Assembly (NCBI GenBank): GCA_038025085.1 | Contig: CM076146.1 | Coordinates: 10,974,001 to 11,038,000, forward strand | Direction of reading: 5' to 3' | DNA length: 64,000 nucleotides | Source: Tetragonia tetragonoides | Taxonomy: Eukaryota > Streptophyta > Magnoliopsida > Caryophyllales > Aizoaceae | Shown here: in pieces, positions 1,403 through 41,844 of the stretch | How positions within the stretch are numbered: the first letter of the stretch is position 1 | How the letters are laid out: each line of letters opens with the position of its first letter | The notes under the pieces: model-generated | What the model saw: only the letters and a program-made list of their open reading frames with translations | Database searches by the model: none | Told to the model about the DNA's origin: nothing | Program-made: the position numbers and the translations under genes

Positions 1403-2249
1403 TGTAGGCTACCGTACTTTTATCCCCTTTTTCGCCCACTTTTTCCTTTGGGTTTCCGGGCAGCCTGGGAGAGCGCGGTCGTTCGGGTTTTCGTGAACCT
1501 TTGAATGCGAATGCACATTAAGATTTTTCTTTTGCACTAAGGACATGATTAAAATTGTCGAAAGTCGCCACCAAATTTAAGGTAATTTGGAAACCTTGGA
1601 ATCAAGTCGATAGTTTAGAAAGACGTCAACTCCATTCCTGTGCACCCCATTCCCTATTGGGGAGATTGATTTCATAAATGAGTTCGGGGGCGTGAGTACG
1701 AGCTAGGAAGGTGTTAGGCACCCAACTCGCCCGTTGACAACAACGGCCTTTACTAATTGATTCAATTTCATTATTAATGCTATGGTTCCAAACAAGGTTC
1801 AATGTGTCCAAATTCCTAGTTTTAACTAAAGGGTTGAACAAATATTATTATTGTGACGACTCTTAACAATTTATCAAATTACATGCTTGTATTGCTAAAA
1901 TCGATAAATATGCTAAAACCTGCAAGTTAGAAGACAAACCAATAATTCATCCACCAATCCACAATAACAAAATTAAAACAATATTCATTCATCCATTAAT
2001 TAGGCTTAATACAAGCTCTTTTGCTCAAAACGCGCCATGCATGTACATACCACATAAACCAAAATCGTTTGTAATAACAAGCAATATAATGATTTATCAA
2101 AAACCCTTAGGTTGGATTACCTAGATGCTCACAATGAACTTATTGGGTAATAATGCTTGAATTCATGCTCTTGATGAAGTGTGAGGGTTTATTTTGTGGT
2201 GTTAGGGCTAACATAAAGAAGGAGTAGGGTCAGAATTTCTAGTTTAATA

Positions 2250-2328
<79 letters not shown>
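2250..2328. repeat. (GA)n microsatellite in T1 3' LTR
   Basis: About 79 bp of nearly pure GA. It lies downstream of the LTR TATA box on the minus strand, so it would be a CU-rich tract in the transcript leader. The matching tract in the 5' LTR is at 16056-16135. Confidence 0.95.
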
Positions 2329-2331
<3 letters not shown>

Positions 2332-2410
2332 TCAACCAAAAGACCAACCATTCAGAGAGAATGTCCAACCTCTCAAATTCCCAACCTCTTCAACTGAACC
2401 CTAAGGTTTG

Positions 2411-2422
2411 TTTATATATAAG
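2411..2422 (-). promoter_or_regulatory. TATA box of T1 LTR (3' copy)
   Basis: Minus strand reads CTTATATATAAA. It lies between the palindrome array (2507-2566) and the GA tract, the order expected for U3 enhancer, TATA box and leader. The 5' LTR copy at 16219-16228 is a weaker TTCTATAAAC. Confidence 0.6.
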
Positions 2423-2506
2423 AGGGGGAGCTATCAGAGGTTGGCACGGAAATCGAGATGGGCCTGGAATTCGCCGTCCGCCAGAAAAGGTCCAGGCGAC
2501 CATACA

Positions 2507-2566
2507 AGCGGCTGAGCTGGCAGGACAAGCGGTCAAGCCGCTTGAACCTGGAGCGGCATGCTTGTA
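2507..2566. promoter_or_regulatory. Palindrome array in T1 3' LTR, shortened
   Basis: Units of the AGCGG...CCGCT palindrome start at 2507, 2528 and 2552. The 2528 unit, AGCGGTCAAGCCGCT, is the clearest. Two units present in the 5' LTR array (16365 and 16386) are missing, as if lost by slippage between units. Confidence 0.75.
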
Positions 2567-3064
2567 TATGCGCCTAACGTGCTTTTCACGTGGGGGAGGC
2601 TTTTTCGAGGGGGTCCCCACGGGTTTGACTGAGTTCCCTTGTTTGATCAAGGGTTGAATCATGGGTTTGGGTTTCCTTTCGGGCCCTTAGGTTCAAAGAG
2701 GCCTATCTCTCAGTGTTGGACTCCAATTAAATTGAGTCCAACTGGTTTGGATCACCTGTACAAAAGGCTTGCACTAGTTAATTCAAATGAACTGGGCTAA
2801 TCATCAGAGCAATTATTCTCGCAACCCAATTTCGAGCAAAATCCAATCCTTTCATCATCTGGTTTTTATGGGGACTTATTATAGACACAATTTTTGGTGT
2901 CTATAGAACCCCTACTTTGGCCGAGCTCGAATAGAGCGAAGGTCAAAGTATTCATGTGACAATTCCTGCAATAAAACAGGAAAACTGAGTGAGGTGACAA
3001 TCAGTTAAAGATAAACAATCATTTTTAGAGTAATAAATTTCCAGGTTTATTTGACCGACAGTTT

Positions 3065-3936
3065 GACCCTATGCTGTAGGTGACACAATAAAAATCCTTC
3101 GATTATTAGTCGAACGGAGAGACCCTTTCGGTTATTAGTCGAACGGAGACACCTATGATGTAGGTCACACAATAAAAATCCTTTGCTTTTTAGTCGAAGG
3201 GGACCCTATGCTGTAGGTGACACAATAAATGTCCTTCGATTTTCAGTCGAAGGGGAACCCTATGCTGTAGGTCACACAATAAATGTCCTTCGGTTTTCAG
3301 TAGAAGGGGAACCCTGTGCTGTATGTTACACAGTAAATGTCCTTCGATTTTAAGTCGAAGGGGAACCCTATGCTGTAGGCTACACAATAAATGTATTTCG
3401 TTAGAAATAAGATAAAAGATAAAATCCTTCGATTTTCAGTAGAAAGGGACCCTATGCTGTAGGTCACACAATAAATGTCCTTCGATTTACAGTAGAAGGG
3501 GAACCCTGTGCTATAGGTTACACAATAAAAATATTTCGTTAGAAATAAGATAAAAGATAAAAATCCTTTGATTTTTAGTCGAAGGGGACCTTATGCTGTA
3601 GGTCACACAATAAATGTCCTTCGATTTTCAGTCGAAGGGGAACCCTGTGTCGTAGGTTACACAATAAAAGTATTTCGTTAGAAATAAGATAAGAGATAAA
3701 AATCCTTCGATTTTTAGTCGAAGGGTGACCCTGTGCTGTAGGTCAAACAAAAAACGTCCTTCGATTTTCAGTCGAAGGGGAACCTTGTACTGTAGGTTAC
3801 ACAATAAATGTCCTTCGATTTTTAGTCAAAGGGGACCCTTTGCTGTAGGTCACACAATAAATGTCCTTCGATTTTCAGTCGAAGGGGGACCCTGTGCTGT
3901 AGGTTACACAATAAAAATATTTCGTTAGAAATAAGA
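3065..3936. repeat. 54-bp tandem repeat (satellite-like) in T1 3' region
   Basis: Tandem copies with a 54-bp period (for example starts at 3231, 3285, 3339 and 3393). Each unit holds a hairpin-forming piece, CCTTCGA-spacer-TCGAAGG, followed by ACCCTATGCTGTAGGTCACACA. From 3393 on, some units are joined by a segment GTATTTCGTTAGAAATAAGAT, giving a higher-order pattern. Open frames across it (3190-3387 minus, 3725-3928 plus) come from the repeat and are not genes. Tat/Ogre elements are known to hold tandem repeats between pol and the 3' LTR. Confidence 0.9.
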
Positions 3937-4151
3937 TGAGTAGTAAAGGGTAATAAAATGTTGCTCAGACCTTAGGTTGGGTGTGAGCCCATGCCATTTA
4001 GCCGAGCTTAAATGTACAAACATGTGGGTTTAAAGTAGTCCTGCTTTCATAAACGGACTTTGGCGCGCAAATAACTGCTATGGGCCTCGCGTGGGGCCCA
4101 CTGATTTTTAACTAATGGCCCATAAAACGCCAGAGCTGAGAAAGTGGGTCA

Positions 4152-4332
4152 GGCGGTCAAGCCGCCACGTCAAGCGGTCGAACCGCTAGGTGGAGCGGCT
4201 ACGTCGCTTGGTGGAACGGTTGAACCGCTCAAGCAAACGGTCAAGTCGTTGGGAGTAGCGGCTAAGCCGCGTGGCTTGCGGTTCAACCGCCAGCTGCGCG
4301 ATCTGACCGTCCACATAGGCGGTTTGACCGGC
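4152..4332. promoter_or_regulatory. Array A: nine 15-bp palindromes at 20-21 bp spacing upstream of the antisense PMD gene
   Basis: Palindromic units of about 15 bp start at 4152, 4173, 4194, 4215, 4236, 4257, 4277, 4298 and 4318. Clear examples are AGCGGTCGAACCGCT (4173), AACGGTTGAACCGCT (4215) and AGCGGCTAAGCCGCG (4257). The period is close to two turns of B-DNA, so all units would face the same side. The array ends 24 bp before a TATA-like box and 292 bp before the ATG of the antisense PMD gene. The same unit occurs upstream of the second antisense gene and in the LTRs. Binding by a protein dimer is inferred. Confidence 0.8.
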
Positions 4333-4354
4333 TACTAGGTTTTCCACGGGTTGT

Positions 4355-4365
4355 GCATAAAAATG
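4355..4365 (+). promoter_or_regulatory. TATA-like box of the antisense PMD gene
   Basis: GCATAAAAATG lies 24 bp after array A and about 260 bp before the ATG at 4624. It is not a perfect TATA box. The leader between contains an upstream ATG at 4382 in another frame, open for about 120 codons, which may just be chance. Confidence 0.4.
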
Positions 4366-4623
4366 AAAAGGGGAGGCCGAAATGGGTCATCTTCCCCATT
4401 TCGAGCCTTCTCCTTTCTCTCTCCTCCATTTTTACTCAAGTTTTCAACCTCCATCAAAGCCTCTAGCTCCAAATCTTGAGGCTTTCTTGCTCAAATTCTT
4501 AGTAGAATTTGATTTTGCTAGTTGTTCTTGTGTTTTTGAGTGTCAAAACTCAAAATTGTGTGAATTTGTGAGTTTTGTGAGTTTCACTCAAATTTCCAAA
4601 AACTCCATTTTTGCTCTTCTTCC

Positions 4624-7600
4624 ATGGCTCCTAAACTTAGAGGAGGTAGGAAAAGGAAGGGGCAAGAGATTGTCATTCATGAGGCCCCGAATATTTTCAC
4701 TCGGATTTTTGTATTCGGTATACCCCATCACCGGGTGGGTGAGAGCCGGGTAGTCCAGGATGAGTTCACTCGTCATGATTTTCATCCTACCGACCGTTGG
4801 GAGCCCAGCGATCTTGTTTTCAAGAAGAAGGAGTGTTTGGTTACCGTTGGTACCAAATGTCGGGTATGTCGTCGTTTCTTTTATTATTTTTTTTGCTCTT
4901 TTACTCTTAGAAAATCATGTGTAGGCAAACATAGAACTTTTAGGTTGAGAACTATAGTGTAGCTAAATGTGGAAAAACCAATTTGCGTGAAATTGTTTTT
5001 CTTGCTAATTTGTGAATTCCCGTAGGTTTCTTATATTATATATATTTTTTCATGTGAAGAATGAATTTGCGTGAAATTCATCTTTAATGGTGGAAAATAA
5101 ATTTGTATGAAATTTATTCTCGTTGCAATTATCATATATTTTTTGTGAAAATAAACTTGAGTGAAGTTTATTTTTGTTGTGGTGGTAGATATTTTTTGAG
5201 TACATTTGTGAAGAATAAACTTGTGTGAAATTTGTTCTCTTTAAAATTTACTCTTGTCACATTGGTTTAGCTAAAATGCTAAATTTTACAAGTTGTAAAA
5301 ATTTAGGACTAAACCTGAGACTGGTAGTTGTTACTAGGATCACGTAGCTAATTGTCTTGCAAATATTGTGTTGTATAGGATATCGACACCACCATGCGGG
5401 GTTATGGTAGCCTTTCGGGTATCAAGAAAGCTCGTAGGTACGTTACTCCTTCGGTCGACGCTATTGTGGAGCGTTGTGGCGTCGGTCACTTTTTAGCGTC
5501 CATCGCTTTTGCGGAGCGCTCCGACCACTTGCTTGTTAGAGATCTTGCGGAGCGGTACTGGGATACTACCAGTACTTTTCATTTTCCTATGGGTGAGATC
5601 ATGATCACCCCTTTCGAGTTTGGTCTCATTTTCTGGCTCCCTTGCACCGGCACTCCTATCACTTATGGAGACGTGAGTAGGGAGGTTATAGTGGAAATGT
5701 TTGGCCTTTCTGGGGCCAACTGGGATAGTAAGGAGTACGGCCGGACTGACGTTATGGTCCAATTCTTGACCAACCCGAGGAAGTTGAATAAGGTCACGGT
5801 GGAGCAGCACGCTCGCCTTTTGTTGGCTTATTTTCTAGCTTGTTCCTTCTTTTTGGATAAAGCTACTAGGTACCATGTTCGCTATTTCCCGTCCTTGCGG
5901 GATATAGAGAGAGTTGAAGAGTACAATTGGGGTCTTACCGCATACTCCTGTCTTCTTCGATGTTTGAGGCAGTCCAGCCGCCTCAGTGGGGAGGAGGGCG
6001 CGTCTCGCATCTCCCTAGTCGGTTATTTAAAGGTTATGGAGGTAATTTCCTTCTACCCTTCTTATACTTTGTGTTTTTGGCTTTTTACTAATAACTTGTG
6101 TCTAATCCATGTGCTTTGCACGTCTTAGATTTGGTTTTATGAGCTTTTTTCCGAACTTGCCCCTCTACTCAGGACAGGGACTTTGTCCTTTTCAGCGATG
6201 CAGACCTCGAAGGGACGGACATCTTGCCCATTTACTACGCTGCACGCCCTTAGGGAGGCGTTATATCCCTTGACCGCTCAGGATGTAAGTAATTAACCTT
6301 TGTGCCTCTTTCGTCCTTTTATCCTTCTGTATGCTCAATCTTTGCTTTTGTAGGTCGACTGGTTTTCCTGGACGGATTACCTCTCGGGTCTGTCGGACAG
6401 ATTTTTGGGTGCTCGGGAGTATGACCATAGGAAGATCCTTATTGAGGGTCCCTTCGGTTTTGAGTGGTTTTTGGGAGAGAGACTGATTAGGCAGACTTTC
6501 TCCAACCTTCCGGCCCCAAGGATTCCTTTGGATCCTCCGGATTCCATGCTTTATGTTTGTCACCTTACTGTGGAGCAGGTAAGGACGGCTACTGTTGGGG
6601 CAAATGCCCTTGAGTATTTGCTTCCGGCTGATCTTGAGGTGGATCTCATGGTGGCATATACTGATTTTGTTGAGGCTCGGTTGTGCCCCAACTTTTCTAC
6701 CGACCCGGTAAATAATGTACTTTGTTTCCTAATTTCGTTTGGTAATTTAGAAATATGTCTAGTATTTTTGGGTCCTTGTAGAGTGTTGCGAGTTCTTCGT
6801 CGTCTCATTCGACCGCTTCCTCTCCGCGCCCTACTCTCCCTTCTATGTCGATGACTTCTACAGGAGCGGATGGATCACCTGAGGTTCTCTTGATTCCTGA
6901 GTTTCATGATCCCGATGAGGAGGTTGAGGGATTGCTTCTACCAGCTGGTTGTAGGGGGGTAAGTGAGAATCCATTGTAACTTGCAATGTTTCCTTTGTTT
7001 TTATACTGACTCTTTTATTTTACGTGCACAGTTGGATGCTGCGGAGGCGCGGAAGATCTATAGAGGCATGCGGGCCTTTAAGAATTGGTTTTCCAGGTTC
7101 GCGTCTCGGAGTGTATGCACGAGTCGTCGGTCCAACGTTCGAGATGTATGTTCATTTCAAGTATAGTGCTCGATTTGAATTTTTGTAATTTTCTGACCTT
7201 GAACTTATTTCGCAGCCTGTTCCCGTGGTGAGGCCTCCCAGGCCTTCAGTTATTCGTACTCCGGAGTCGATGTCTACACCGCAGCGTCCTCCTCCTAGGC
7301 AGGAGAGTACAGAGGTGCGTCAGGGGACGCCTCGAGCTAGAGTGGATACGGGGAATCCATCCCAAGTGCCTTATCTTCCGCAGTGGCCTACACCGCCTCC
7401 CTATATGAGGTATCCGGGCTATCATATGCCCATGTATCCTCCAGTCCCTCCAAGGGGTTCTTGGAGTCAGGAGAGTACGGGGTATGGCGGCTATCCCGAC
7501 ATGTCGGCGCCACCGCGTCATTCACTGGATCCCGCTTACCTGACGTGTTCATTATTTGTTTTTGACCCTAGAGCTTGGGCGATGTCTCAGCCCGGTCCTT

Positions 7601-7674
7601 TAGGTGCTCCATCATCGAGTGGACCCGGAGAGTTGTCTCAGGCGGGTCCGAGTACTGGCGAAGATGGCCACTGA
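4624..7674 (+). CDS. Antisense plant mobile domain (PMD, aminotransferase-like) protein of T1, seven exons, intact
   Basis: Exons: 4624-4863, 5379-6041, 6129-6284, 6354-6707, 6782-6958, 7032-7145, 7216-7674. Every intron (515, 87, 69, 74, 73 and 70 bp) begins GT, ends AG and is phase 0; the frame is open for 720 residues. Residues 1-80 are basic at the start (RGGRKRKG). Residues about 81-350 read as a plant mobile domain: FHFPMGEIMITPFEFGLIFW, then RYHVRYFPSLRDIERVEEYNW, then IWFYELFSELAPLL. Residues 354-471 end in a conserved-looking block; the tail (from 472) is rich in S, P, G and Y. In plants, PMD proteins of the MAIN/MAIL1 type act in the nucleus in silencing and genome stability, and PMDs are also carried by transposons. 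The exact role here is unknown. The introns survive because the element RNA is antisense to them. Confidence 0.85.
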
Positions 7675-8210
7675 TATTTGTTGTAGTGCATTTCGAACTT
7701 TCGGGCTTGTATTAAACCTGCTATAAATTTTTTCATTTTATTCACGCACAAAATTATATCATGCAAATGCCCATATGTGAACTTAATCAACTAATTTCCG
7801 AGTGGAAAATCATAAATTACGATATTCGAGAATTTAGGATTCTCGAGAATTTAGCACATTTGGGGTACGCCTTCCCCTAAAATACAAAATAAAGTAAAGA
7901 AAAGTAAAAACTAGAAAAAGATAATTAAAAGGGGAAAATATTAATAAAGGAAATAAAGAAATCAGAAAATAAAAGGAATAAAAGTGGAACTTGATAATCA
8001 AAATAAAAAGAAGGAAAGAAAATAAAAAGGGAATAAATAGAAAAGTGGCATGAGCCAAAATTAAGGTAAGAAAAATATAAGGAAAGACATCCAAAATCTG
8101 TCCAAGTGGGAGTTAGGAAAGTAGTGCCCGGTCAAACGGTGGGGTCGGTTGGACTGAGGTCTCTCGCGAAATAGCACACCAGGCGCCTATACAGAGTGAT
8201 TACTAGAGCT
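7675..8210. other. Spacer between the two antisense genes, purine-rich on the plus strand
   Basis: No gene is supported. From about 7876 to 8090 the plus strand is almost only A and G with few pyrimidines (AAATAAAGTAAAGAAAAG and similar). The minus-strand frame 7834-8094 is a low-complexity shadow of this (F, L, I rich). The 3' end of the PMD transcript should fall near 7680-7760. Confidence 0.6.
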
Positions 8211-8330
8211 CCTAGCGGCTGTGCTAGAGCTCTAGCACATGCCGCTTGGGCTTGCGGTTTGGCCGCTTGCTGGAGCGGCTAAGCCGCTCGTCCTAGCGGC
8301 TAAGCCGTCTGGACTAGCTGCGAGGCCGCC
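8211..8330. promoter_or_regulatory. Array B: palindrome array upstream of the second antisense gene
   Basis: Full units start at 8253, 8274, 8295 and 8316, exactly 21 bp apart (8274 is AGCGGCTAAGCCGCT, a perfect inverted repeat around its centre). Half units (AGCGGCT at 8214, GCCGCT at 8241) extend it to the left. Between them lies a perfect 20-bp palindrome, TGTGCTAGAGCTCTAGCACA (8220-8239). The array ends 64 bp before the TATA box at 8394 and 143 bp before the ATG at 8473. It matches array A and the LTR arrays in unit and period. Confidence 0.8.
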
Positions 8331-8393
8331 TGGCCGCTTTTTTGTCGGTTGTCTGAATTTCCTTAATTTTTCGACGAGAATCCACCCGTAGCC

Positions 8394-8402
8394 TCTATAT
8401 AG
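8394..8402 (+). promoter_or_regulatory. TATA box of the second antisense gene
   Basis: CTATATAGT lies 71 bp before the ATG at 8473 and 64 bp after array B, a normal plant promoter layout. Confidence 0.6.
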
Positions 8403-8472
8403 TTGGGTTTCTTTCTCTTTTTTCTCACCACTTGCCTTGAGCCCCTAGAGAGAGAAAGCTTGGTTGGCTTCC

Positions 8473-9984
8473 ATGACCGTAGAGGAGAGGTTAGAGCTTA
8501 CTCCCTTCCACCTTAATGCCTTCTTTAACCTCAAACAAGTTAAGATTTTGTGGGACTTTCTTCATGCTTCCATTGAATTTTGGGACCCTGAGTTCCATGT
8601 CTTCCGTTTTGGTGCTCATGAGATGTGCCCTTTGGTGGAGGAGTTCTTCGATATCATTGGCTTTCCAACCAAAAGCCCTCTCCCCGTTCCTTACTTAAGA
8701 AATGCTTTCGTGGGTGATTTTCAAAGGTACCTCGGGTTGTCTCCCCATCAAGCGGGTCAAGTGCTTAATGGTGAGGATGTTGATCTTGCCAAGCTTGTGA
8801 CTTTCTTCACCTCCAAGGCCTGGGATGTGATGGACATGAGGTACAAGAAACGTGCCTTTGTATTTTGCCTCCTGCATCGTTATTTGTTCATTGGTGGTGA
8901 TGAAGATGCTCTTACTCCCTCCGAAAAGAAGTTGACCATCAACAGGGGCAAAGCTTGCCTTCTTAGGGTGACCGAGCAAATTCAATGGGATAGCTCTCCT
9001 ATGCACTTGGTCGTGGGAGAGACAATCCTTGCTTTAGATAGACTCAAGAGCAATCCTCAAGAGTCCTTCACCGGGAGCCCTTTACTCCTTCATGTAAGTT
9101 TCGTGATAAAGTCTTAATCTTTGTGGATTTAACTTTATTTGGTGAAATTCTCATCTTGTATTGACTTGAATTTTCTTTTGTTGCTTTTGTGTAGATATGG
9201 CTTCAAGAGAGACTCCACTTGCTTGAAGCCCCAATAGACACTAGGAAGTTCCTCCCTAAGCACTTTCCGGCAAGGCACCGAAAGTTCTATGAATCCTCTC
9301 GGGAGGACTGGATAGCATACTTCTATACCAACATCCTACCGGTTTGGTTCGTCCCGTGGCGCCGTACCACCAAGATTGTAGGTTGCAGTTGAGAATGTGC
9401 CCTTTACGATGATCATTGGTTTGTATACCTTGACGTTCTTCTTACCGAACCGCCTCCTTCGCCAATATGGCTTAAGGCAAAGGATTCCGAATGTAGGTTG
9501 TGAACCTTCTTGCCAAAGGCCCTTAACATCCTCCATGGTGTCTAATTGGGAGTGGCACTGGAACCGTTGCCAAGTGTGGACTAAGCCGATATACCCGCAC
9601 TCAAACGGGTTACCTAGCTTTTATGAGGAGTGGATTTGGAGCGGTGATCATCAAGTCAACCAAAGGCTCCTAGAAGAGGAAAAGGAGTTGTTCAAAACCC
9701 GCAAATATGACGAGCCCAATGGTGTAAGGATAACTCCCATTCATAGGCCCTCTAAGCCTTCCAAGCCCCAAATTAAGGGTAAGGGAAAAGGTAAGGCAAA
9801 GGCCCAATCTAAGAAAAGGAAGAATCCGGCCCACTCGGCCAAGCAAGCAGCTCCAATTAGGCCCAATGATCACGAGGCCTCTTCTAGCTATGGTAGGGAA
9901 AGATGGGCTCCAAAAGAACGAATGGAACTCGATGAGCCTAGCGAACCCGTCCTAGAGCCCGAAGTCAAAGACAAGGAGGAGTAG
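8473..9984 (+). pseudogene. Second antisense gene of T1, DUF7745/PMD-like, two exons, one frameshift
   Basis: Exon 1 runs 8473-9093 (donor GTAAGT) and exon 2 9195-9984 (acceptor TGTGTAG), a phase-0 intron of 101 bp. Near 9381 one extra base shifts the frame: the first frame hits TGA at 9390, while the next frame is open to 9984. Without the shift the product would be about 470 residues. Its start (LTPFHLNAFFNLKQVKILWDFL, shortened) and HVFRFGAHEMCPLVEEFF recall the DUF7745 proteins common in plant genomes, distantly like PMD; this is from memory and not checked. Residues near KGKGKGKAKAQSKKRKN look like a nuclear localisation signal. The tail is acidic. The ATG at 8473 is chosen because it follows a TATA box and opens the conserved-looking region. 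Confidence 0.6.
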
Positions 9985-10603
9985 TCCACCTCTAGTTGTC
10001 TAGCAAGTCTTGTTCTTTTTGCTTAGTAGTATAATTTAAATAACGGGTTTCCATGCCCAAGTAGATGTAGTTTAGAATTGCCCTTTTATTTATTTATTAC
10101 TTGTCTCGTACTCTTCTTTTTTTTTTTATTAGTGCATGTAATGGACTTTAGCCATATTAATGAAAGACTTGCTTATTTTTGAATTAATCGAATGGATTAA
10201 AACTCCCTTAGAGATTTATTTTATTAAAGTGGTCGGGGCCAGGTTATATGGGTTACCTACATATCCATGCGGAATCAGGCCAATGTAGTTCGTAAAACCA
10301 TATCTCGTTTTTTTTTTTTTTTTTTTCGGTCGTAGGTCCTAGGTGGACAGGTTTGACCGATTTTTACTTGGACTTGGTGCCTTAGTGGGCTCTCTCAAAG
10401 ATTTAACATTTATGCATAGAATTGCTTAAGTTGGTCAATATTTGTGAGTTGAGTGAACACGTTGCCGTCTAAATCCATTAACTTTACCGCTCTACCGGAT
10501 AATATTGTCTTGATAATTTATGGGCCGGCCTAATTAGGCTTGAACTTTCCCCGAGGGTCGACTACAATTGGTTTTACCTCTTTTAGGACTAAGTCTCCTT
10601 TTT
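9985..10603. other. Region between antisense gene 2 and the end of pol, with a conserved block
   Basis: Converging 3' ends of the plus-strand gene and the minus-strand pol. A block at about 10224-10286 (GGAATCAGGCCAATGTAGTT at its core) recurs in T3 at 20017-20085. A T run lies at 10309-10326. Nothing coding is supported. Confidence 0.6.
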
Positions 10604-11603
10604 TTAGTCCTCTAGCCTTGAACGTTGATCAAAATGTCTTGCCATCCTTACTTGGTAGACATGACCATAATGTAGAGCATTTAGTCGTCTTTCATCTAGC
10701 AAGACCAATTGGTCATACCGGGCTTGGACCCAATCCACTTCGGGTAATTCACTTTCCAAAGCTATCCTTAAGGAAGGGATTTCTACCTCGACTGGGAGTA
10801 CCGCCTCCATTTTGTGTACTAAAGAATAAGGCGTTGCTCCTGTTGAGGACCGAATAGTAGTTCTATATCCCCATAAGGCAAATTGTAGCTTGTCGGGCTA
10901 ATCTTCGTAGTTTTCTGTCATCCTTAGCTATCATTTGCTTTACGTTCTTGTTTGCGGATTCTACTGCTCCATTTGTTTGTGGCCTATAAGGTGAAGACTG
11001 TCGATGTTGAATTTTAAACTCAGTGAAAAGTGTGGCAACATCCTTTTTGAATTGGGTCCCGTGATCACTTATGATTTCGTGGGGTACTCCGTATCTGGTA
11101 ATGATGTTGTCATGTATGAACTTTGCCACGTGCTTTGATGCTATTCTTGCGTACGAGCGAGCTTCAACCCATTTGGTGAAATAATCTATCGCGACTAGTA
11201 TCTATTCATGGCCTCCTTTTCCTGTAGGGGAGATTTTTCCAATGTTGTCAATGCCCCATCCAGAGAACGGCCATGGTGAAGTGAATGTATGTAGAGGAGT
11301 AGGAGGTCTATGTTGTAAATTGGCGTGGAATTGGCAGCGTGTGCACTTTCTCACGTATTCGATGTAGTCTTTCTCCATGGTGGTCCAATAGTATCCTTGC
11401 CTTAGGATTTTCTTGACCAAGGTTAGTCCATTCATGTGAGGACCACATACGACGTTATGTATGTCGCTCATGACTTTACTTGCTTCATGTTCCTTTAGAC
11501 ATAGAAAACTTATCCCTTGTGGTGTCTTTTTATAAAGCTTGCCTTGCACATGTATATATTGTGCGGCTAGTCTTCTTAAATCTCTTTGTGCCCTAGGTGT
11601 CAA
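10604..11603 (-). pseudogene. T1 integrase, broken
   Basis: Reading down the minus strand: zinc-binding HHCC part (IHNVVCGPHMNGLT ... CTRCQFHAN), then GWGIDNIGKI with the first acidic residue of the DDE triad, then after a stop near 11218 the core with ISDHGTQFKKD (second Asp) and NGAVESANKNVKQ (Glu). The last piece (10604-10810, MEAVLPVEVEIPSLRI) is in another frame. So it has in-frame stops and a frameshift near 10840 and cannot give a full integrase. In an active element integrase inserts the cDNA into the chromosome. Confidence 0.88.
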
Positions 11604-11612
11604 TTGTGGAGG

Positions 11613-12602
11613 TTAATCACCTTTGGCTAGCATATTGAGAATGTCGGTAAACCATTCCTCTTCTTCTTCCTCATTGGCGCGTACTTCAAGTGCATTACAA
11701 AAGGCGGGCTCAGTGCGCCTTTGAATGTAAATAGGCATGGAGATTACATCATCTGGAATATTTATCATGGAAGCCAATTTTGCTAAGGCATCCGCGAACT
11801 GGTTGTCATCTCTAGGAAGGTATGTGAAACGGACATTAGTGAAATATTTGGCTATCTTTTCAAGATATTCCTGGTAAGGTGCCAGGGATTCGCTTTTCAC
11901 TTTCCAATTTTTGGAGACTTGGTTTATGATGAGAGTGGAATCTCCATATACCTTTAGATCCTTAATTTGTAATTCTATTGCCGCTTCTAAACCAATGATG
12001 CATGCTTTTTATTCGGCGCCGTTGTTGGTTACCTCATGGTCTAGTTTGACGGCTATGGGAGTATGTGCGCCTTCTGGGCTGACTAATAATACTCCTATGC
12101 CATAACCTTTTTGGTTTGATGCTCCGTCAAAGTATAACGGCCAAGTGTTTTCTTCGACACTCATTATTCCTTCATCAGGAAAGTCATGTGTGGTATCTTC
12201 ACTATTAACTGGGTTTTCAGCGAGATTTTCAGAAATGGCATGTCCTTTGATCGCCTTTTGGTGTTCAAACGTTAGATCGAATTCTGAAAGCATGACAGTC
12301 CATCTTGCTATTCTTCCACTAAGAATGGGTTTTTCGAACAAGTACTTTACTGGATTCATCCTTGATTTTATATGGATAGAGTATTGTAGCATGTAATGTC
12401 AAAGCTTCTTTGTTGCAGTGACCAATGCGAGACACGTTTTCTCTAGTGTGGAGTAGCGTGTTTCATATTCTAGGAATTTCTTGCTAAGGTAGTATATTGC
12501 CTTTTCGTCATTCTCCACCTTTTGGGCAAACATAGCACCCATGGCGGTTTCTGTGACTGTTAGGTATAGCATAAGTGGTTTTCCTGGAATTGGCGGAACC
12601 AA
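11613..12602 (-). pseudogene. T1 RNase H and archaeal-type second RNase H, broken
   Basis: 12602-12399 is the first RNase H after RT (MLYLTVTETAMGAMF, YYLSKKFLEYETRYS). 12392-12009 and 11900-11613 hold the second RNase H: LYFDGASNQKGYGIGVLL with the first catalytic Asp, NNGAE, then LPRDDNQFADALAKLAS with the last Asp. All pieces are in one frame and separated only by stops. The stop at 12399-12401 is TGA where relatives have Arg, a CGA to TGA change. The second RNase H marks the Tat lineage. Confidence 0.85.
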
Positions 12603-12620
12603 TACGAGTGGATTAGCTAA

Positions 12621-13430
12621 CTATTCCTTAATTTTGTCGAAAGCTTGTTGGCATTGATCATCCCAGGTAGATTTGGTGTCCTTTTTGAGCTTTTTGAAGA
12701 TAGGCTCGCATGTAATCGTCCATTTGGATATGAATCGACTTATATATTGGAGTCGTCCTAAGAATCCTCTTATCTCCTTTTCATTTTTGGAAGAGGGCAT
12801 ATCTCTTATGGCTTTGATTTTGGTAGGATCAATTTCGATGTCTCTTGTGCTTATGACGAACCCTAAAAGCTTGCCAGAAGTTATTCCAAATGCGCATTTT
12901 TGAGGATTTAATCTCATATTGTACTTTAGAAGCCTATCGAAGAATTTCTTTAGAGAGGGTATATGTCGTTCTCTCTCCTTGGATTTGATGATCATATCGT
13001 CTACATACACCTCAGCTTCCTTGTGCATCATGTCATGTAGAAGGGAAGTTGCGGTTCATTGGTACGTTGTTCCCGCATTCTTCAACCCGAAAGGCATGAC
13101 GGTATAGCAATATGTTCCCCATTGGGTTATGAAGGTGGTTTTCTCCATGTCTTCTTCGACCATTTTTATTTGGTTATACCCTGCATAGCCATCCATGAAT
13201 GATAAGAGGGCATGTCCTGCGGTATTGTCCACCAGTACGTCTATATGTGGCAAGGGAAAGTCGTCCTTTGGATTATCCTTGTTTAGACCTCTAAAATCCA
13301 CGTACATCCTTACTTTGCCATCCTTTTTTGGAACGGGCACTATGTTAGCACCCATTCGGGATATTGAGAAACCGTAATAAAACCGGCTGCGAGCTATTTT
13401 TGCACCTCTTCTTTGATTTTCAATGTCCAA
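12621..13430 (-). pseudogene. T1 reverse transcriptase, broken
   Basis: Minus-strand RT with VPKKDGKVRMYVDFRGLNK, SFMDGYAGYNQI and the catalytic box VYVDDMIIKS. It continues with GKLLGFVISTRDIEIDPTK and FLGRLQYISRFI. Two open pieces (13430-13056 and 13031-12621) share one frame with a stop between them near 13056. It would copy the element RNA to DNA if whole. Confidence 0.9.
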
Positions 13431-13876
13431 TCAGGTTTCATTCTCCGAAGTTTTTGCTTTACCGGTTTTGGATAAAGATTGAGCGGTATTGTATGCTGTG
13501 CTATCTCACGACTTATTCCCGGCATGTCTTTGTAGGACCAAGCGAAAACGTCTATGTATTCTTTTAAGAGATTTATAAAGCTTTCTCGCTCTTTGGGATT
13601 TAACCATAAGCCAATGCGCACTTGGCGCGGGTCTTGATCGCTTGCAAGATTGATTAATTCTGTTTCTTCCACAATTGAAGTCTTGTGTTCATGCTCTAAT
13701 AGTGCTTTAGTTACTTCTTTGGGCAATTCTTGTTCATCTTTTGAATTATTAGCTACTAAGTAATCCAAGAAGTAAGCAGAATCAGTAATCATTTCATTGA
13801 TAGAGGAAACTGGAACATCAACTAAGCCATTACTATTGGCTTTAACATTATTAGACTTGCAAGTAGAATTAAACAT
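13394..13876 (-). pseudogene. T1 pol linker upstream of RT
   Basis: 160-codon ORF in a different frame from the RT. It ends with LWLNPKERESFINLLKEYID and VFAWSYKDMPGISREIAQH, the typical linker of Tat pol between protease and RT. No protease precedes it. A frameshift lies in the overlap 13394-13430. Confidence 0.8.
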
Positions 13877-15161
13877 AGAGGAGTGACAAGTGCAACGTCG
13901 AGGCTAGCTTTGCTCAAAAGGGGAGACTCTAATATGAGCTTCCTAACCAGACGTTGATTACTATTATCGCGCTCCCAACTTTTCAGACCGACTATTTTCT
14001 TCCCAATCCTGGACAGCGGATAAGACTTAGAAAAGGAAAGACTAACAAGTTCCACAAAAGAAAAGTTTTAGAACAAAAGTGGGAAGTCTCTATCTAGAAT
14101 ATTCTATCAACATAGTTACCCTTGGGGACTAAGTAATGAGTTAAGGTCAAAAGATCTTGACGCGGGATAAAATAAAAAGATTTTATACTCTTGACTAAAA
14201 GGAAATGGGGGAGATATTATCTCGACTCAATATGGGATAAATAAAAATATTTTATATTCTTGACTAAAAGGAAAGGGGAGAGATATTATCTCGACTCAAT
14301 ATGGGATAAAGCAAAAGATATTATACTCTTGACTAAACGGAGAGGGGAGAGATATTATCTCGACTCAATATGGGATAAAGCAAAAGATATTATACTCTTG
14401 ACTAAACGGAGAGGGGGGAGATATTATCGAGATCTTTTGGCCTAGACTCACTACCTAAATAAAAGGAAAGAATAAAGCATTCAAGTCTTTCCTAAGGTAA
14501 CGAGCATCCTATAAAACATTCAGGGATATTGTTTCCTAAAAATAAAGATTCTAGACTCAATATTAAGACAAAATCTAGACTTAAAAAAGGAAAAGATCCT
14601 AATTGGGATCTAACCTAATATTCTTTGACGACCAAAAAGACTACTCAAAGATTGCGTTCACATATGGGCAAACAGCACAACAACGCAAATGACATGATTA
14701 TGAAAATCTAGCGTGGACATGGGACTGAGCTTCAACCTAAAACATTGGTTCTAGTTCATGCAATGGGGTAGGCTTAAGGGCTTTGGTCAAAAGGTACTCA
14801 TGATCAAGAATATACTACAATCAGCGGGATGCGCGACAATGTGAGGCATTCTAGTTATCCTACTCGTCGAATGGACGAATGCGTAGGAAGGTACATGAGG
14901 TGGGGGGATCTATGATTCTTGGCAAAGAAGAATCGAGTGGATTCTCACCAAGGCACTTGACCACACTCCATTGGCTAAAAACTAGTTTGAACTTGTAAAA
15001 ACAAGCTCGGAAGTCGCGCAAGCGCATGCACATGAATGCAATGAATGCAAATTAATAGATGAATGACAAGTCAGCAAATAATAATAAGAACACTCAAGGT
15101 AGTGAACCAAGCAAAAATAATGATAATGAATCGATTTTCAAGTTACACCCTCTTAATCATG
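13877..15161. other. T1 leader without gag or protease
   Basis: Where gag and protease should be there is 1.3 kb with no gag-like frame on the minus strand. The only clear structure is the 69-bp tandem array at 14163-14430. The frame at 13822-14055 shows no known domain. So the gag-protease part was lost or replaced. Confidence 0.7.
14163..14430. repeat. 69-bp tandem repeat in T1 leader
   Basis: Units begin with GACTAAA at 14193, 14262, 14331 and 14400, exactly 69 bp apart, with a partial unit before and after. Each contains GAGATATTATCTCGACTCAA, of which GAGATATTATCTC is itself an inverted repeat. The plus-strand frame 14260-14445 only reflects the repeat. Confidence 0.9.
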
Positions 15162-15179
15162 TCCCCAGTGAAGTCGACG
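15162..15179 (-). other. T1 primer binding site, tRNA-Arg-like
   Basis: Minus strand reads CGTCGACTTCACTGGGGA. The same place in T3 reads TGGCGACTTCACTGGGGA, so T1 has two changes. From memory this type of site matches the 3' end of a plant tRNA-Arg, as in Ogre/Tat elements. It adjoins the LTR at 15182. Confidence 0.75.
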
Positions 15180-16054
15180 CTAATAGGCTACCTTATTTTT
15201 CTCCCCTTTTTCGCCCCCTTTTTCCTTCGAGTTTCCGGGCAGCCTAGGAGAGCGAGGTCGTTCGGGTTTTCGTGAACTTTGAGTGTGAATGCACATTAAG
15301 ATTTTCTTTTTGCACTAAGGACATGATTAGGATTGTCAGAAGTCGCCACCAAATTTAAGGTAATTTGGAAACCTTGGAATCAAGTCGATAGTCTAGAAAG
15401 ACGTCAACTCAATTCCTGTGCACCCTAATCCATATTGGGGAAATTGACTTCATAAATGAGTTCGGGGGCGTGAGTACGAGCTAGGAAGGTGTTAGGCACC
15501 AAACTCGCCCGTTGACAACAATGGTCTTTACTAATCGATTCAATTTAATTATTAATGCTATGGTTCCAAACACGGTTCAATTTGTCCAAATTCCTAGTTT
15601 TAACTAATGGGTTGAACAAACATTATTATTGTGACCACTTTTAACAATTTATCCAATTACATGCTTTTATTGCTAAAAACGATAAATATGGTAAAACCTG
15701 CAAGTTAGAAGACAAACCAATAACTCATCCACCAATCCACAAACAAAGCATAATTTAATCATAAGAAGTCATAAATAACAAAATTAAAACAACATTCATT
15801 CTACCATTTTAATTAGGCTTAATACAAGCCAAGCGCGCCATGCATGTACATATCACATAAACCAAATTCGTTACTAATAACAAGCAATATAAAAGTTTAT
15901 TGAAAACCCTCAGGTTGGATTACCTGGATGCTCACAATGAACTTATTGGGTTATAATGCTTGAATTCATGCTCTTGATGAAGTGTGAGGGTTTATTTTGT
16001 GGTGTTAGGGCTAACCTAAAGAAAGAGTATGATCAGAATTTCTGGTTTAATATG

Positions 16055-16055
<1 letters not shown>

Positions 16056-16135
<80 letters not shown>
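16056..16135. repeat. (GA)n microsatellite in T1 5' LTR
   Basis: About 80 bp of pure GA, the counterpart of 2250-2328. Long R/E alternating frames over it are artefacts. Confidence 0.95.
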
Positions 16136-16138
<3 letters not shown>

Positions 16139-16218
16139 TGTCAACCAAAAGACCAACCTTTCAGAGAGAATGTCCAACCTCTCAAATTCCCAACCTCTTC
16201 AACTGAACCCTAAGGTTC

Positions 16219-16228
16219 GTTTATAGAA
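16219..16228 (-). promoter_or_regulatory. TATA box of T1 5' LTR
   Basis: Minus strand TTCTATAAAC, about 95 bp downstream of the last palindrome unit and about 530 bp from the LTR start. Transcription of the element RNA would start just below 16200. Confidence 0.55.
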
Positions 16229-16322
16229 GAGGGGGAGCCGACAGGGTTTAGCACGGAAATCGAGATGGGCCTCGAATTTGCCGTCCGCGAGAAAAGGTCC
16301 AGGCGGCCATACATCTAGGCCA

Positions 16323-16421
16323 AGCAGCTGAGCTGGCAGGACAAGCGGTCAAGCCGCTTGGCCTAGCGGCACAGCTGCTTGTCCTAGCGTGGCCGCTTGG
16401 ACCTGGAGCGGCATGCCTGTA
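16323..16421. promoter_or_regulatory. Palindrome array in T1 5' LTR U3, five units at exactly 21 bp
   Basis: Unit starts at 16323, 16344, 16365, 16386 and 16407. The 16344 unit is AGCGGTCAAGCCGCT; 16386 has lost three central bases but the next unit is still in register. This is the same unit and period as arrays A and B. Confidence 0.8.
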
Positions 16422-16752
16422 TAGGCGCCTGACGTGCTTTTCACGCGGGGGAGGCTTTTCCGAGGGGGTCCACGCAGGTGTGACTGAGTTCCCTTGTTTG
16501 ACCAGGGGTTGACTCATGGGTTTGGGTTCCCTTTCGGGCCCTTAAGAGGCCTATCTCTCAGTTTTGGACTCCAATGAATTGAGTCCAACTGGTTTGGGTC
16601 ACCTGTACAAAAGGCTTCCACTGGTTAATTCAAATGAACTGGGCTAATCATCAGAGCAATTATTCTCGCAACCCAAGTTCGAGCGAAATCTAATCCTTTC
16701 ATCATCGGGTTTTTACGGGGACTTATTATAGACACAATTTTTGGTGTCTACA

Positions 16753-16757
16753 GCAAT
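16753..16757. other. Target site duplication of T1, right copy (GCAAT)
   Basis: Matches 1398-1402; see T1. Confidence 0.9.
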
Positions 16758-24250: not shown

Positions 24251-24561
24251 TCTATTTTTATTTTCGGAGGAATTTTTAGTGTTCCGAAAATGTGAAAAGA
24301 CTATTTTACCCTTCTGCGGTAAAGACGGGTTTACCCTCGACTAGCAACTTGGCAACCGTAAGTCGGAAAAAGATACGAGAGGTGTAGTTGGAAGCTCTTG
24401 AACGGGGCTTTTGAATGTGATCGAAATAAAGGAGTGATAGAAGAAAAACCTGAGACCCTATTTTACGTATCAAAGCAAGAATAGCATTCAAGTTTATAAA
24501 TTACTCATTTCATCATCGGGCTTTTGTAGAGAAATCTAAAGACATTTTTTTGGTGTCTACA

Positions 24562-27249
24562 AGTATTTGAGACCGGCTTCTCTTTTGTTGGGCCAAAAAC
24601 AATCCTGGAGTGCAATGAATACCCTTTTGTTGCACCATGGCCCTGTTACGAAGGGAGAAGTCATTATTTTCCTGGTTTATGTTTTTAGTCGGTTGTGTAT
24701 GGGAAAGTCTTGTAACATATGTCGTACCTTTCTCCACTTAGCAGCCAATGTGGCTTCTATGGAAGGTTCTGCCCCCTTGCCCCCTTTTTCTTTTACCTCA
24801 ATTATATCGAGGATTGAGTCGAATGATCATTCATCCTTCTCGAATAGAGCGACAAAGTTTCCCTTTGTGGATCTTAATTGTGTGGGCACATGTATATTAC
24901 CCTCATTTAGTCCACACATTATCAAATGAGGCGTATGAGCTCCAGCTTCGAACTGAAACAGAGAACTACCTGGGTTCTCTTATTAATTGTAATAGATCTG
25001 CTCGAGGTGAGTGGGGTTGTGTTGCCGAAGCTGTTTTTAATAAATGTGTCCCCTCTAATTCAAATGAATTCCCTCGAGTTATGTTTGAGTTCCTTTCGAA
25101 ACCTCCTTCCTTTAACTGGCACCCTGCTCGAAACTTGGGTGTTGTTCCTAGTGCAGTTGATCCTGTTTGACTAGCTATTCCTGATTGGTTGTCTTCTTTC
25201 AACCCTTTCCTTATTACTGACAATCAAGGTCGGACTTTTTGGAATTCTGTCTTATGTGCTCGTGACCTTCTTTTCATTGACTCCCACGAGATGGGTGCGG
25301 AGGTCTATAATCCCCAACTTGTTGTTAGGAAATTTGGGTTAGTACATACTTGTGCTATTCCTTTTATTAAGACTCTCGATCGCTCCTGGTCTTCGGGGGT
25401 CAATTTACTAGGTTACGTGGTTAGTCAGAAGTTGGAGGACGCTGGTCGTCATGAGCAATTCTTTCGAATGCAACGTACTCTCTCAACCAATATGAGTAAG
25501 AGGAAGATTCTTCCTTGGGTGAGAGCTGCTCGTGCTAAGCTTGGATATGTTCGATGGTGGAACAGGTTTGCTTCCACTTATCTTCATCCTGATTCCCTTC
25601 GACCACGTATTGAAGCAGTTTTAGGGATTCTTTACCCTGAGCCTATTGTGAATGCTGCTGTCCTAGCTCCCTTTCGAGCTCTTGTTTCTCCTCCTTTTCT
25701 TTTTGAGGTATTTCATTTCCCTTATAAGTTACTTTTCATAATTCTTTTATGACTTTTATAACTTATTTCGTTTGGTTGTAGCCTATCCCAGAGGCATTTT
25801 CTGATGAGGAACCAACAAATGAAGGTGCTGTCAATGTGCCCCCTCTTGTCATTGCACCTCTTAACATGGTCCCTCCCTTGTCTTTACCTTCTTCATCTTC
25901 CAGTTTGAAGCATCCTAGGGATATTACTTCTTCGAGTCGAAGAGGGTCATCTTCCGTGCGCCCAGACCGTATCGTTGAGTCTGGTTATTCTTCTTCTGAC
26001 GAACCCCTTGTTTTTAGGCGTCGTCGAAGTAGAGGTATTTTTCTATCCTCATTCTCTTCTTTTATGGATATTTTATATACATATCTCTTACTAATGCTAT
26101 TTGTATGTATGTAGAGGGTTCTTTTTCAATTTTTGTTCGAACCACACCTATCTCTTCTTCTCCTTTACCTGTGGTGGAGCCTATTTCTCAGGCCCTAATA
26201 CTCCATTCATCTGGTATGAACTTCATTCCGTCTATAATAACCTTTCGATTTTCTATTTATTAAAACTGATTTTCTCTCTTTTACATCCTCATGTAGAGCC
26301 CATAGTTGAGGATTTGCCTCCTTTAGTTCCATCGGGACATGTTTCTCCTGTTCGTGCTCCTAATATTCATTCGCCTTCGAGTTTGAATTTCTACTTCTTT
26401 CTTTTTCTTCTCCTTATTTTCGAAAATAACAGAGTTATTTCCTTTTTTAGGTACGGTGAAAATAGCTATTTCATCCGACTTAGAGGATGTTGTAGCAGAT
26501 AACTCTAAGTTAGAGGATCCATGTTTATCCTCTCCTAACCCTTCCCTTGATCAACAGCCAAACTTGGTTGTTCAACCGTAACCTGAGACACTGGTTGCTA
26601 TAGGTTAGAATTCTTTTATATTCTAAATTTCTGCTCATTCGTGAACTTTTTCTCATTCGTGAACTTTTTATCTCATAACTTCTCTTTTGTAGGTATTCCA
26701 ACACCTATTTCATCTTCTCCTTCCGTTGCAACCATGCCTTCGAAGGCTGAGGACCTTCATTTAATATATGCCTTGTCATCTGATATTTCTAAGGTTGAGA
26801 TTGCGTTGAGCTTCAACACTTCTTTGTTAGTATTGAATCCCTTTTTCCTGAACGAATTAGGGGTTTCATTATTAGGAATGTTGATGTTCTTGTCCAGTTC
26901 ATTCGAGATGCTCACGATGCATCTATATCAGATACTGCCCTAAATGTGTTATCTACTCAACTCGAGGAGGCTCACACATTACTTCAACAAGAGGCAGGAG
27001 TTTATCAAACTTTATCTACTGAACTATCTGATATTGATCAATAATTGCAACTCCTTCAAACTCGTAGGGGTCAACTTTTTGAGCAAGTGCCCTCCTTCTA
27101 ATCTGCCTTTACGGATGAGGAGACCCAATTAACAGATTTGGCGAAGACTGTTAAAGATCGTATAGATAGGGTATCATTCCTTAGATTCTCACAAACCACA
27201 GTTAGGGCTATTCTAAGTTCCCTTAGACATTGTTTGAATGCCTTCGTGT
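24562..27249 (+). pseudogene. Antisense PMD-like gene of TD, 5' truncated and decayed
   Basis: Counterpart of the T2 gene at 33153-36480, joined at the point where T3 inserted. It reads LLLGQKQSWSAMNTLLLHHG, then EVIIFLVYVFSRLCMGKSC, shifts frame near 24790-24810, then RKILPWVRAARAKLGYVRWW and LHPDSLRPRIEAVLGILYP. Exon 1 ends 25707; exon 2 is 25782-26034; further short S/P-rich exons follow, and the last exon ends near 27249 with a coiled region (LNVLSTQLEEAHTLLQQEAG). In-frame stops include one at QQP (near 26580) and two in the last exon. The N-terminal third is beyond the left edge, past T3. Confidence 0.7.
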
Positions 27250-27432
27250 AATATTCTTTTCCGTCAATATGAACACGTGACTTTTATTTGACTTTTGACC
27301 ATTTTTATTTTCTGCGTTATCTTTGTCGTTTTCCGTATTTTTCTTTGTTTTTATCGCCCCTTTATTCTATGAATAGGCTACTTCACGATCGTTCATTCTC
27401 ACCCCTATTCATTCCATTTCTTCTCTTCTTCT

Positions 27433-36100: not shown

Positions 36101-36480
36101 TTAACAATGTGGGAGTTCTTACTCAATTCATTCGTGATGCTCGCGACGCATCTCTGTCAGATGATGCTTTGAAGGTGTTGTCTACTCAACTCGAAGAGTC
36201 TTATACCCTTCTTCAGCAGGAAACAGGATTTTATCAGGCCTTGTCTGCTGAGTTGTCTGATATTGATCAACAACTACAACTCCTTCAAGCTCGTAAAAGT
36301 TTTCTTTTGGAACGAGTGCCTTCTTTACAGTCTAATTTTGCTGGCGAAGAAATTCGCTTAACAGCCATAGCAAAATTAGTTAAGGATCGTATGGATAGGG
36401 TATCTTGTCTTAGGTCTTGTCAAACCACTATTCGGGCTATTTTGAGTTCCCTTAAGCAGTGTTTGGACATTCTTGTATGA
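33153..36480 (+). pseudogene. Antisense PMD-like gene of T2, about six exons, decayed
   Basis: Start ATG at 33153 (MANSEPFLDLKGVDN), 110 bp after a TATA-like CCTATATATG. Exon 1 runs to 34965 and encodes a PMD-like domain: VFSRLCIGKSCNIGRIFLPL, LTVWAHVYYPHLVHTLSDE, RKILPWVRAARVEPGYARWW. Further exons are about 35055-35304, 35381-35440, 35519-35606, 35680-35859 and 35934-36480; the last encodes a coiled segment (SAELSDIDQQLQLLQAR). Breaks: an A run at 33201-33207 is one base too long, TGA stops at 34066 and 34207 (both CGA to TGA), TAA near 36045, and the exon 2 donor at 35305 is CT in place of the GT kept in TD. The gene is a different PMD type from that of T1. No known function. Confidence 0.75.
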
Positions 36481-38571: not shown

Positions 38572-38779
38572 ATCGATGTGCTATGAGTTTTAGTTTGTTC
38601 GAATATTTCTTCTTTGATGTTTCTTGGAGGAATTCAATTATTTCGTCCCTCTAATCAACCTCCTTGATCATAATATCTACTTTATTAATTTCCATCGTTA
38701 TTCTTTCCTCGAATGGAACAAGTTCCTTGGCCTTGATTGTAATCTTTTCGTGGAAATAACTCCAAGGAATTTTATACCT

Positions 38780-40446: not shown

Positions 40447-40455
40447 CCTCTGGGG

Positions 40456-40941: not shown

Positions 40942-40986
40942 AATTCTTAAAAATGATAATGATTACAATAATTTCTAATCCTATTT

Positions 40987-41823: not shown

Positions 41824-41844
41824 CTCGTGCCATCGCTGACGTTC

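What the first reader, a model, noticed from the sequence alone, without database searches (positions are those of the whole stretch)
4152..4332. Nine helically phased palindromes upstream of an antisense gene inside a retrotransposon
Nine 15-bp palindromic units (AGCGGYYNARCCGCT type) start every 20-21 bp, about two turns of DNA, and end 24 bp before a TATA-like box of the antisense PMD gene. Bases between units vary more than the palindromes, as expected for a row of dimer-binding sites and not for a simple satellite. The same unit appears at three other places in T1, always just upstream of a TATA box. This looks like an operator or enhancer module shared by the element's sense and antisense promoters. 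That the spacing and motif exist is seen; regulation, and that one of the T1 proteins might bind, are inference.
Basis: partly seen in the sequence, partly recalled or inferred. Interest (0 to 1): 0.88.

Follow-up and report, generated by a model that had tools for sequence, protein, structure and literature searches.

The report
Palindrome arrays at retrotransposon promoters
A plant jumping gene carries rows of evenly spaced mirror-image DNA motifs in front of its own promoter and in front of two genes that run the opposite way, so one DNA-binding protein may control both directions; very similar motifs are already known from an unrelated family of plant jumping genes.

Summary
Nine palindromic units start every 20-21 bp at 4152-4332; all nine keep at least 5 of 6 bases of a CGG-N5-CCG core and six are exact (shuffles mean 0.15, maximum 2). 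Of 13 exact CGG-N5-CCG sites in the 64 kb window, 11 lie in four arrays of one element and 2 in its PMD coding sequence; exact cores with any other gap from 0 to 12 are absent from the arrays. Arms are more conserved than spacers, far more strongly than in a 54-bp tandem repeat of the same element. The element (1403-16752, minus strand, TSD GCAAT) is a dual-RNase-H Ty3/gypsy retrotransposon with two antisense genes, PMD and DUF7745. Arrays precede both genes and the LTR TATA; the DUF7745 promoter shares a further 36-column block with the LTR. Best reading: dimer-binding control arrays shared by sense and antisense promoters. The kind is known: Sirevirus (Ty1/copia) repeated motifs (PMC2829016), Inga's being AGCGGTASTACCGCT. 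New are the superfamily and the antisense PMD/DUF7745 link. Binder and regulation are untested; one copy was seen, as the genome search did not complete.

The parts
1403..16752 (-). LTR retrotransposon T1, flanked by the 5-bp target site duplication GCAAT (1398-1402 and 16753-16757)
   Evidence: LTR pair 93.0% identical, 1377 of 1481 aligned sites
4152..4332 (.). Array A: nine palindromic units (CGG-N5-CCG core), period 20-21 bp, upstream of the PMD gene
4356..4362 (+). TATA-like CATAAAA of the PMD gene (weak match, use inferred)
4624..7674 (+). Antisense PMD gene, apparently multi-exon (open stretches include 4624-4862, 5379-6125, 6129-6293, 6354-6851, 7189-7671); exon limits inferred, not spliced here
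   Evidence: PF10536 E=1.3e-14 on ORF 5394-6128; frames; no Pfam match in five further stretches
8160..8194 (+). Block upstream of array B shared with the LTR U3 (36 alignment columns, same orientation to transcription)
   Evidence: score 41, 1000 shuffles at most 27
8232..8330 (.). Array B: five unit positions at 21 bp (three exact CGG-N5-CCG at 8255, 8276, 8297; the unit at 8232 keeps only its right arm), upstream of the DUF7745/PMD-like gene
8396..8401 (+). TATATA box of the DUF7745 gene (use inferred)
8464..9984 (+). Antisense DUF7745/PMD-like gene (ORFs 8464-9117 and 9397-9984; open stretch 9195-9389 between)
   Evidence: PF24924 E=5.1e-6, 26.2 bits against a cut-off of 26; PF10536 below cut-off on both ORFs
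1403..2905 (-). 3' LTR; TATATATAAA 86-90 bp downstream of array C
2507..2566 (.). Array C in the 3' LTR (one exact core at 2530; degenerate units at 2507 and 2552)
15182..16752 (-). 5' LTR; TATAAA 97 bp downstream of array D
16323..16421 (.). Array D in the 5' LTR (one exact core at 16346; four weaker unit positions at 16323, 16365, 16386, 16407)
16417..16452 (-). LTR copy of the shared block, just upstream of array D in transcription direction
   Evidence: coordinates converted from the alignment
10604..13430 (-). pol remnants in the order RT, RNase H, second RNase H-like domain (RVT_3), integrase, interrupted by stops

Best explanation
The arrays are proximal cis-regulatory elements: rows of inverted-repeat binding sites (CGG-N5-CCG, commonly AGCGG...CCGCT) for a dimeric plant DNA-binding protein. 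They sit upstream of the core promoter in the LTR (sense genomic RNA) and of the promoters of the two antisense genes, so one factor can act on both transcription units. The 21-bp period puts successive dimers on nearly the same helix face and would allow cooperative binding. Shown: motif, period, N5 specificity, arm-over-spacer conservation, position upstream of TATA-like boxes in three promoter contexts, a second shared block between the LTR and DUF7745 promoters, and the match to the published Sirevirus motif. Inferred: that a protein binds the sites, that the binder is a host factor (a LOB-domain/LBD protein is the candidate I would test first), that binding activates transcription, and that the TATA-like boxes are used.
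For: 11 of 13 exact CGG-N5-CCG sites of the window lie in the arrays; for each other gap from 0 to 12 the arrays hold 0 and the window 0-5. All 13 lie within T1. Exact cores exceed shuffles in array A (6 vs mean 0.15) and B (3 vs mean 0.03), 0 of 500 each. Arms vs spacers: 1.37 vs 0.38 bits in A; first six units by period alone 1.56 vs 0.74, p=0.005; 17 units of A, B, D 1.26 vs 0.50, p=0.003. In-element control, the 54-bp repeat with inverted arms: 1.72 vs 1.50, p=0.052. Lag-21 peak in A, B and D. TATA-like box 23-97 bp downstream of all four. LTR/DUF7745 shared block. Sirevirus repeated motifs have the same layout, and 8 of the 12 with a CGG-CCG core have N5. LOB-domain proteins are said to bind GCGGCG, and dimerisation of wheat Ramosa2 to serve palindromic DNA discrimination (introduction of PMC10118128, passages).
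Against: One element copy only. Units were picked by motif, so the arm/spacer contrast is partly built in; the period-only test reduces this but does not remove it, and the control repeat leans the same way, weakly. Dyad covariation within units is weak (A, 5-bp arms 36 of 45 vs 32.8 shuffled, fraction 0.06; 7-bp arms 47 of 63 vs 41.8, 0.035; A+B+D 7-bp arms 83 of 119 vs 74.6, 0.012). CATAAA is a poor TATA. The LTR arrays hold only one exact core each. Inverted arms also occur in the 54-bp repeats, which have no promoter role that I can see. No expression, binding or chromatin data.
Confidence: 0.68

Rival explanations
1. Tandem-repeat by-product: a 21-bp module containing a palindrome was duplicated by slippage or template switching, as is common in this part of such elements; the period is the duplication length and there is no regulatory role.
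For: [quoted passage not shown]). The two LTRs differ by 39 bp within the array, nearly two periods, and by 9 bp at its edge, so the arrays do change length.
Against: Spacers are far more degenerate than arms while the period persists, unlike the 54-bp array. The same N5 unit stands in three promoter contexts; the only other exact cores in the window are two in PMD coding sequence.
Confidence: 0.15
2. RNA-level or silencing role: the palindromes form hairpins in element RNA and act as small-RNA sources or targets, as reported for maize Sirevirus LTR palindromes.
For: Array A RNA folds better than 200 of 200 shuffles on each strand (z -6.05 and -6.59). Maize Sirevirus palindrome clusters are small-RNA hot spots (Bousios 2016 as cited in passages of PMC10760457 and PMC5311732).
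Against: Any DNA palindrome folds on both strands, so folding does not discriminate. Array A lies upstream of, not in, the inferred antisense mRNA (though in the sense RNA). Regular 21-bp spacing and TATA proximity are not expected. It could coexist with the best explanation as a cost.
Confidence: 0.1
3. Self-encoded operator: the PMD and/or DUF7745 protein made from the antisense genes binds the arrays and counters silencing or feeds back on both promoters, in the manner of VANC proteins of VANDAL elements.
For: Each antisense gene carries an array at its own promoter. Both predicted proteins have basic, NLS-like stretches (by eye). VANC binds short motifs gained by tandem repetition in non-coding parts of its element (PMC5735166, passages). 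The Grande antisense protein localises to the nucleus (PMC7264820, passages).
Against: The same palindrome type occurs in Sireviruses, another superfamily, which fits a conserved host binder better. The one PDB match to the PMD ORF is at chance level (E=0.031), so no solved relative suggests DNA binding.
Confidence: 0.07

Closest known systems
Sirevirus repeated motif (RM), Ty1/copia (Bousios et al. 2010, PMC2829016; sections 9 and 19 and passages read)
   Same: Palindromes with a CGG-CCG core (N5 in 8 of 12), many copies, upstream of the LTR TATA and upstream of an extra gene between pol and 3' LTR; Inga RM AGCGGTASTACCGCT matches T1 unit 4173 at 13 of 15 positions (8-13 of 15 over the nine units).
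   Different: T1 is Ty3/gypsy with dual RNase H; the extra genes are antisense PMD/DUF7745, not sense ENV; fewer LTR copies; 20-21 bp period (no period is given in the sections I read).
Antisense genes of Retand/Grande-type Ty3/gypsy elements (PMC11963269, parts 1-2 of 5 and passages; PMC7264820, passages)
   Same: [quoted passage not shown] Grande gene23 is transcribed from its own promoter.
   Different: PMD/DUF7745 instead of TRP28; the passages I read mention no palindrome arrays; LTRs of 1503 and 1571 bp exceed the 315-1194 bp given for Retand clusters.
VANDAL/VANC anti-silencing system (PMC5735166, passages)
   Same: [quoted passage not shown]
   Different: The VANC motifs shown are 8-9-mers in VANDAL elements and bound by an element protein; no trans-factor is shown for T1, and its motif is a 15-bp palindrome.

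Membership tests
Sirevirus RM-type palindromes | Dyad-symmetric unit with CGG-CCG core | tested here: met
Sirevirus RM-type palindromes | At least eight copies per element | tested here: met
   9 units in array A; 11 exact cores in four arrays
Sirevirus RM-type palindromes | In the LTR, shortly upstream of TATA | tested here: met
   86-97 bp; 3 and 5 unit positions in the two LTRs, one exact core each
Sirevirus RM-type palindromes | Extra copies upstream of an additional gene between pol and 3' LTR | tested here: met
   Arrays A and B; but these genes are antisense and not ENV
Sirevirus RM-type palindromes | CpG-island character | tested here: inconclusive
   CpG o/e 1.22 in A, 0.86 B, 0.77 C, 0.54 D; element 0.75; GC 0.59-0.63
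Sirevirus (Ty1/copia) element | Integrase before RT (copia order; recalled) | tested here: not met
   Order RT-RH-RVT_3-INT
Ty3/gypsy Tat-type | RT-RH-second RH-INT order | tested here: met
   dual RNase H of the Tat family also in PMC9289625 passage
Retand lineage | RT phylogeny within Retand | not tested
   No plant RT reference set used
Retand lineage | Antisense TRP28 domain (97% of clusters in PMC11963269) | tested here: not met
   Nine antisense open stretches scanned with Pfam: PMD and DUF7745 matches only
LBD-bound palindrome | Half-sites and spacer fit a LOB-domain dimer | tested here: inconclusive
   CGG half-sites resemble GCGGCG; the spacer preferred by a LOB dimer was not seen in any paper passage
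VANC-type anti-silencing system | Element protein binds the repeats | not testable with these tools
   No binding data

The most novel reading that the evidence does not exclude
A Ty3/gypsy retrotransposon has independently arrived at the Sirevirus palindrome design and uses it as a bidirectional switch: its own antisense-encoded PMD/DUF7745 proteins bind the helically phased palindromes at the LTR and at their own promoters, balancing genomic RNA against accessory-protein output or lifting host silencing.
Probability: 0.07. Interest if true: 0.85.

Novelty: new variant of a known kind. Interest (0 to 1): 0.5.

Why it matters
If two unrelated superfamilies of plant retrotransposons use the same CGG-N5-CCG palindrome rows at their LTRs and accessory-gene promoters, a common host factor is likely, and its identity becomes a direct test. 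It also gives a concrete candidate control element for antisense genes of Tat-type retrotransposons, whose functions are described as unknown (PMC7264820, passages).

Tried and rejected
Relatives: the PMD exon found no protein relatives (0 of 404 candidates at E up to 0.001). RT and DUF7745 found none in viral contigs (0 of 7 and 0 of 2 candidate stretches). RT in genome contigs gave 1 of 33 stretches, 26 residues in a bacterial MAG, judged irrelevant. A two-unit pattern gave two viral contigs, not followed. Genome contigs is bacterial and archaeal and viral contigs viral, so this says nothing about distribution in plants.

Considered and rejected: array A as a copy of the LTR array (its flanks do not align; the upstream flank of array B does, its downstream flank does not). 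Array A as an ordinary tandem repeat (contrast). PMD genes as such carrying arrays: the PMD ORF at 33187-34068 and the T1 PMD ORF do not match each other by tblastn at E up to 1e-3, and no exact CGG-N5-CCG lies outside T1. Not determined: PBS, host species (that the DNA is from a plant is my judgement from the plant-type retroelements and PMD/F-box proteins). LBD as binder rests on one introduction and general knowledge; a review of LOB proteins searched for GCGGC, CGG and palindrom gave no such words. I found no paper on such arrays in Ty3/gypsy elements in searches; the listings were capped (for example 20 of 34, 15 of 38) and the library is partial. PMC11302176, looked at in passages, has no such arrays there. 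Bousios 2016 is not held and is known here only from citing passages.

Rows dropped: the dyad count used A, or A+B+D (17 units); array C was left out as a near-duplicate of D. The 19-row information profile used A, B, two units of C and three of D; the 17-row one left C out. Two degenerate unit positions of D and one of C were in none of these counts.

Full report
What is there. At 4152-4332 nine palindromic units start at 4152, 4173, 4194, 4215, 4236, 4257, 4277, 4297 and 4318. Six hold an exact CGG-N5-CCG core and three miss one core base. Dinucleotide shuffles of 4140-4340 give 0.15 exact cores on average and at most 2 in 500. At 10.5 bp per turn, successive centres are 2.0 turns apart for the first six units and 1.9-2.0 for the rest.

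The element. The array lies in an LTR retrotransposon on the minus strand, 1403-16752, with GCAAT on both sides. The LTRs are 1503 and 1571 bp long (boundaries), and 93.0% identical over 1481 aligned sites. The minus strand encodes RT, RNase H, a second RNase H-like domain (RVT_3) and integrase, in that order and interrupted by stops, which is Ty3/gypsy with the dual RNase H of the Tat group. No gag match was found in the minus-strand stretches scanned between pol and the 5' LTR (13394-13903, 13822-14067, 14860-15051). The plus strand carries two genes antisense to pol: a DUF7745/PMD-like gene from 8464 (DUF7745 just above its cut-off) and a PMD gene from about 4624 that looks multi-exon.

Where the unit occurs. 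Exact CGG-N5-CCG occurs 13 times in 64 kb, always in this element: 6 in array A (PMD promoter), 3 in array B (DUF7745 promoter), 1 in each LTR, and 2 in PMD coding sequence (7488, 7505). For gaps of 0-4 and 6-12 bases the arrays hold none. Arrays A, B and D each have their strongest self-similarity at lag 21. A TATA-like box follows the arrays at 23, 65, 86-90 and 97 bp; that of the PMD gene is weak.

Drift of arms and spacers. In array A the arms carry 1.37 bits, the centre 0.84 and the spacers 0.38. Because units were chosen by motif, I repeated this on the first six units by period alone: arms 1.56, spacer 0.74, p=0.005; on 17 units of A, B and D: 1.26 against 0.50, p=0.003. A control exists in the same element: the 53-54-bp repeats at 3096-3917 also have inverted arms (CCTTCGA-N7-TCGAAGG), but there the arms carry 1.72 and the rest 1.50 bits (p=0.052, 14 copies), a small difference in the same direction. 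Covariation of the two arms within units is only weak.

Links between promoters. Apart from short chance-level matches, promoter A has no detectable similarity to the LTR or to promoter B outside the units. The upstream flank of array B matches the LTR flank upstream of array D over 36 columns ending in CAGGCGCCTATACAG, in the same orientation to transcription (score 41; 1000 shuffles reach at most 27). The downstream flanks do not match. So the DUF7745 and LTR promoters probably share an old promoter cassette, of which this block and the palindromes remain recognisable. The two LTRs differ by 39 bp inside the array and by 9 bp at its edge, so the arrays change length.

What is known. Bousios et al. 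2010 (PMC2829016; sections 9 and 19 and passages) described palindromic repeated motifs in 13 Sireviruses (Ty1/copia), 12 of them with a CGG-CCG core: at least eight and up to 32 copies per element, upstream of the LTR TATA and, in elements with an ENV gene, upstream of ENV. Of those 12, 8 have N5. The Inga motif AGCGGTASTACCGCT matches T1 unit 4173 at 13 of 15 positions. The paper itself says that function needs testing. Later work, seen as citing passages, found maize Sirevirus palindrome clusters to be small-RNA hot spots; [quoted passage not shown] Antisense genes in Retand/Grande are known (PMC11963269, parts 1-2 of 5 and passages; PMC7264820, passages), and PMD in Gypsy elements is known (PMC9289625, passages). 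None of the passages I read describes palindrome arrays at antisense promoters.

Mechanism. The strict N5 gap, the drift pattern and the positions fit binding sites for a dimer. A host factor is likelier than a self-encoded one because the same design recurs in another superfamily. LOB-domain proteins are a fair first candidate: they are said to bind GCGGCG, and dimerisation of wheat Ramosa2 to serve palindromic DNA discrimination (introduction of PMC10118128). This is inference. RNA folding is strong on both strands, but any DNA palindrome does this, so it does not favour the RNA rival.

Limits. One element copy, no expression or binding data, host species unknown, and the whole-genome search did not complete (11 requests). 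Whether the arrays are general to the family, which the finding proposed as the main check, is therefore open.

Noticed in passing
window 3096-3917: 53-54-bp tandem repeats next to the 3' LTR also carry 7-bp inverted arms (CCTTCGA-N7-TCGAAGG), 14 copies: a second, different palindromic repeat in the same element, with no promoter seen beside it.
   Followed up: partly
window 14164-14428: 69-bp tandem repeat, 3.8 copies, between the 5' LTR and pol, where gag would be expected.
   Followed up: no
window 24552-27363 and 33187-36583: Two regions with blocks about 74% alike, one with a PMD-like ORF at 33187-34068 (34.8 bits, cut-off 34.9); no tblastn match to T1 PMD and no exact CGG-N5-CCG.
   Followed up: partly
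window 37372-44855 and 46230-54227: Two neighbouring stretches with blocks 80-86% identical that look like copies of one retrotransposon (gag PF03732 in both, integrase PF00665 in the first; RT not scanned), with no exact CGG-N5-CCG.
   Followed up: partly
window 4078-4125: GTGGGGCCCAC and GGGCC/GGCCC motifs, TCP/site-II-like by recall, lie just upstream of array A.
   Followed up: no
window 59080-60360: F-box protein ORF with a beta-propeller domain.
   Followed up: no
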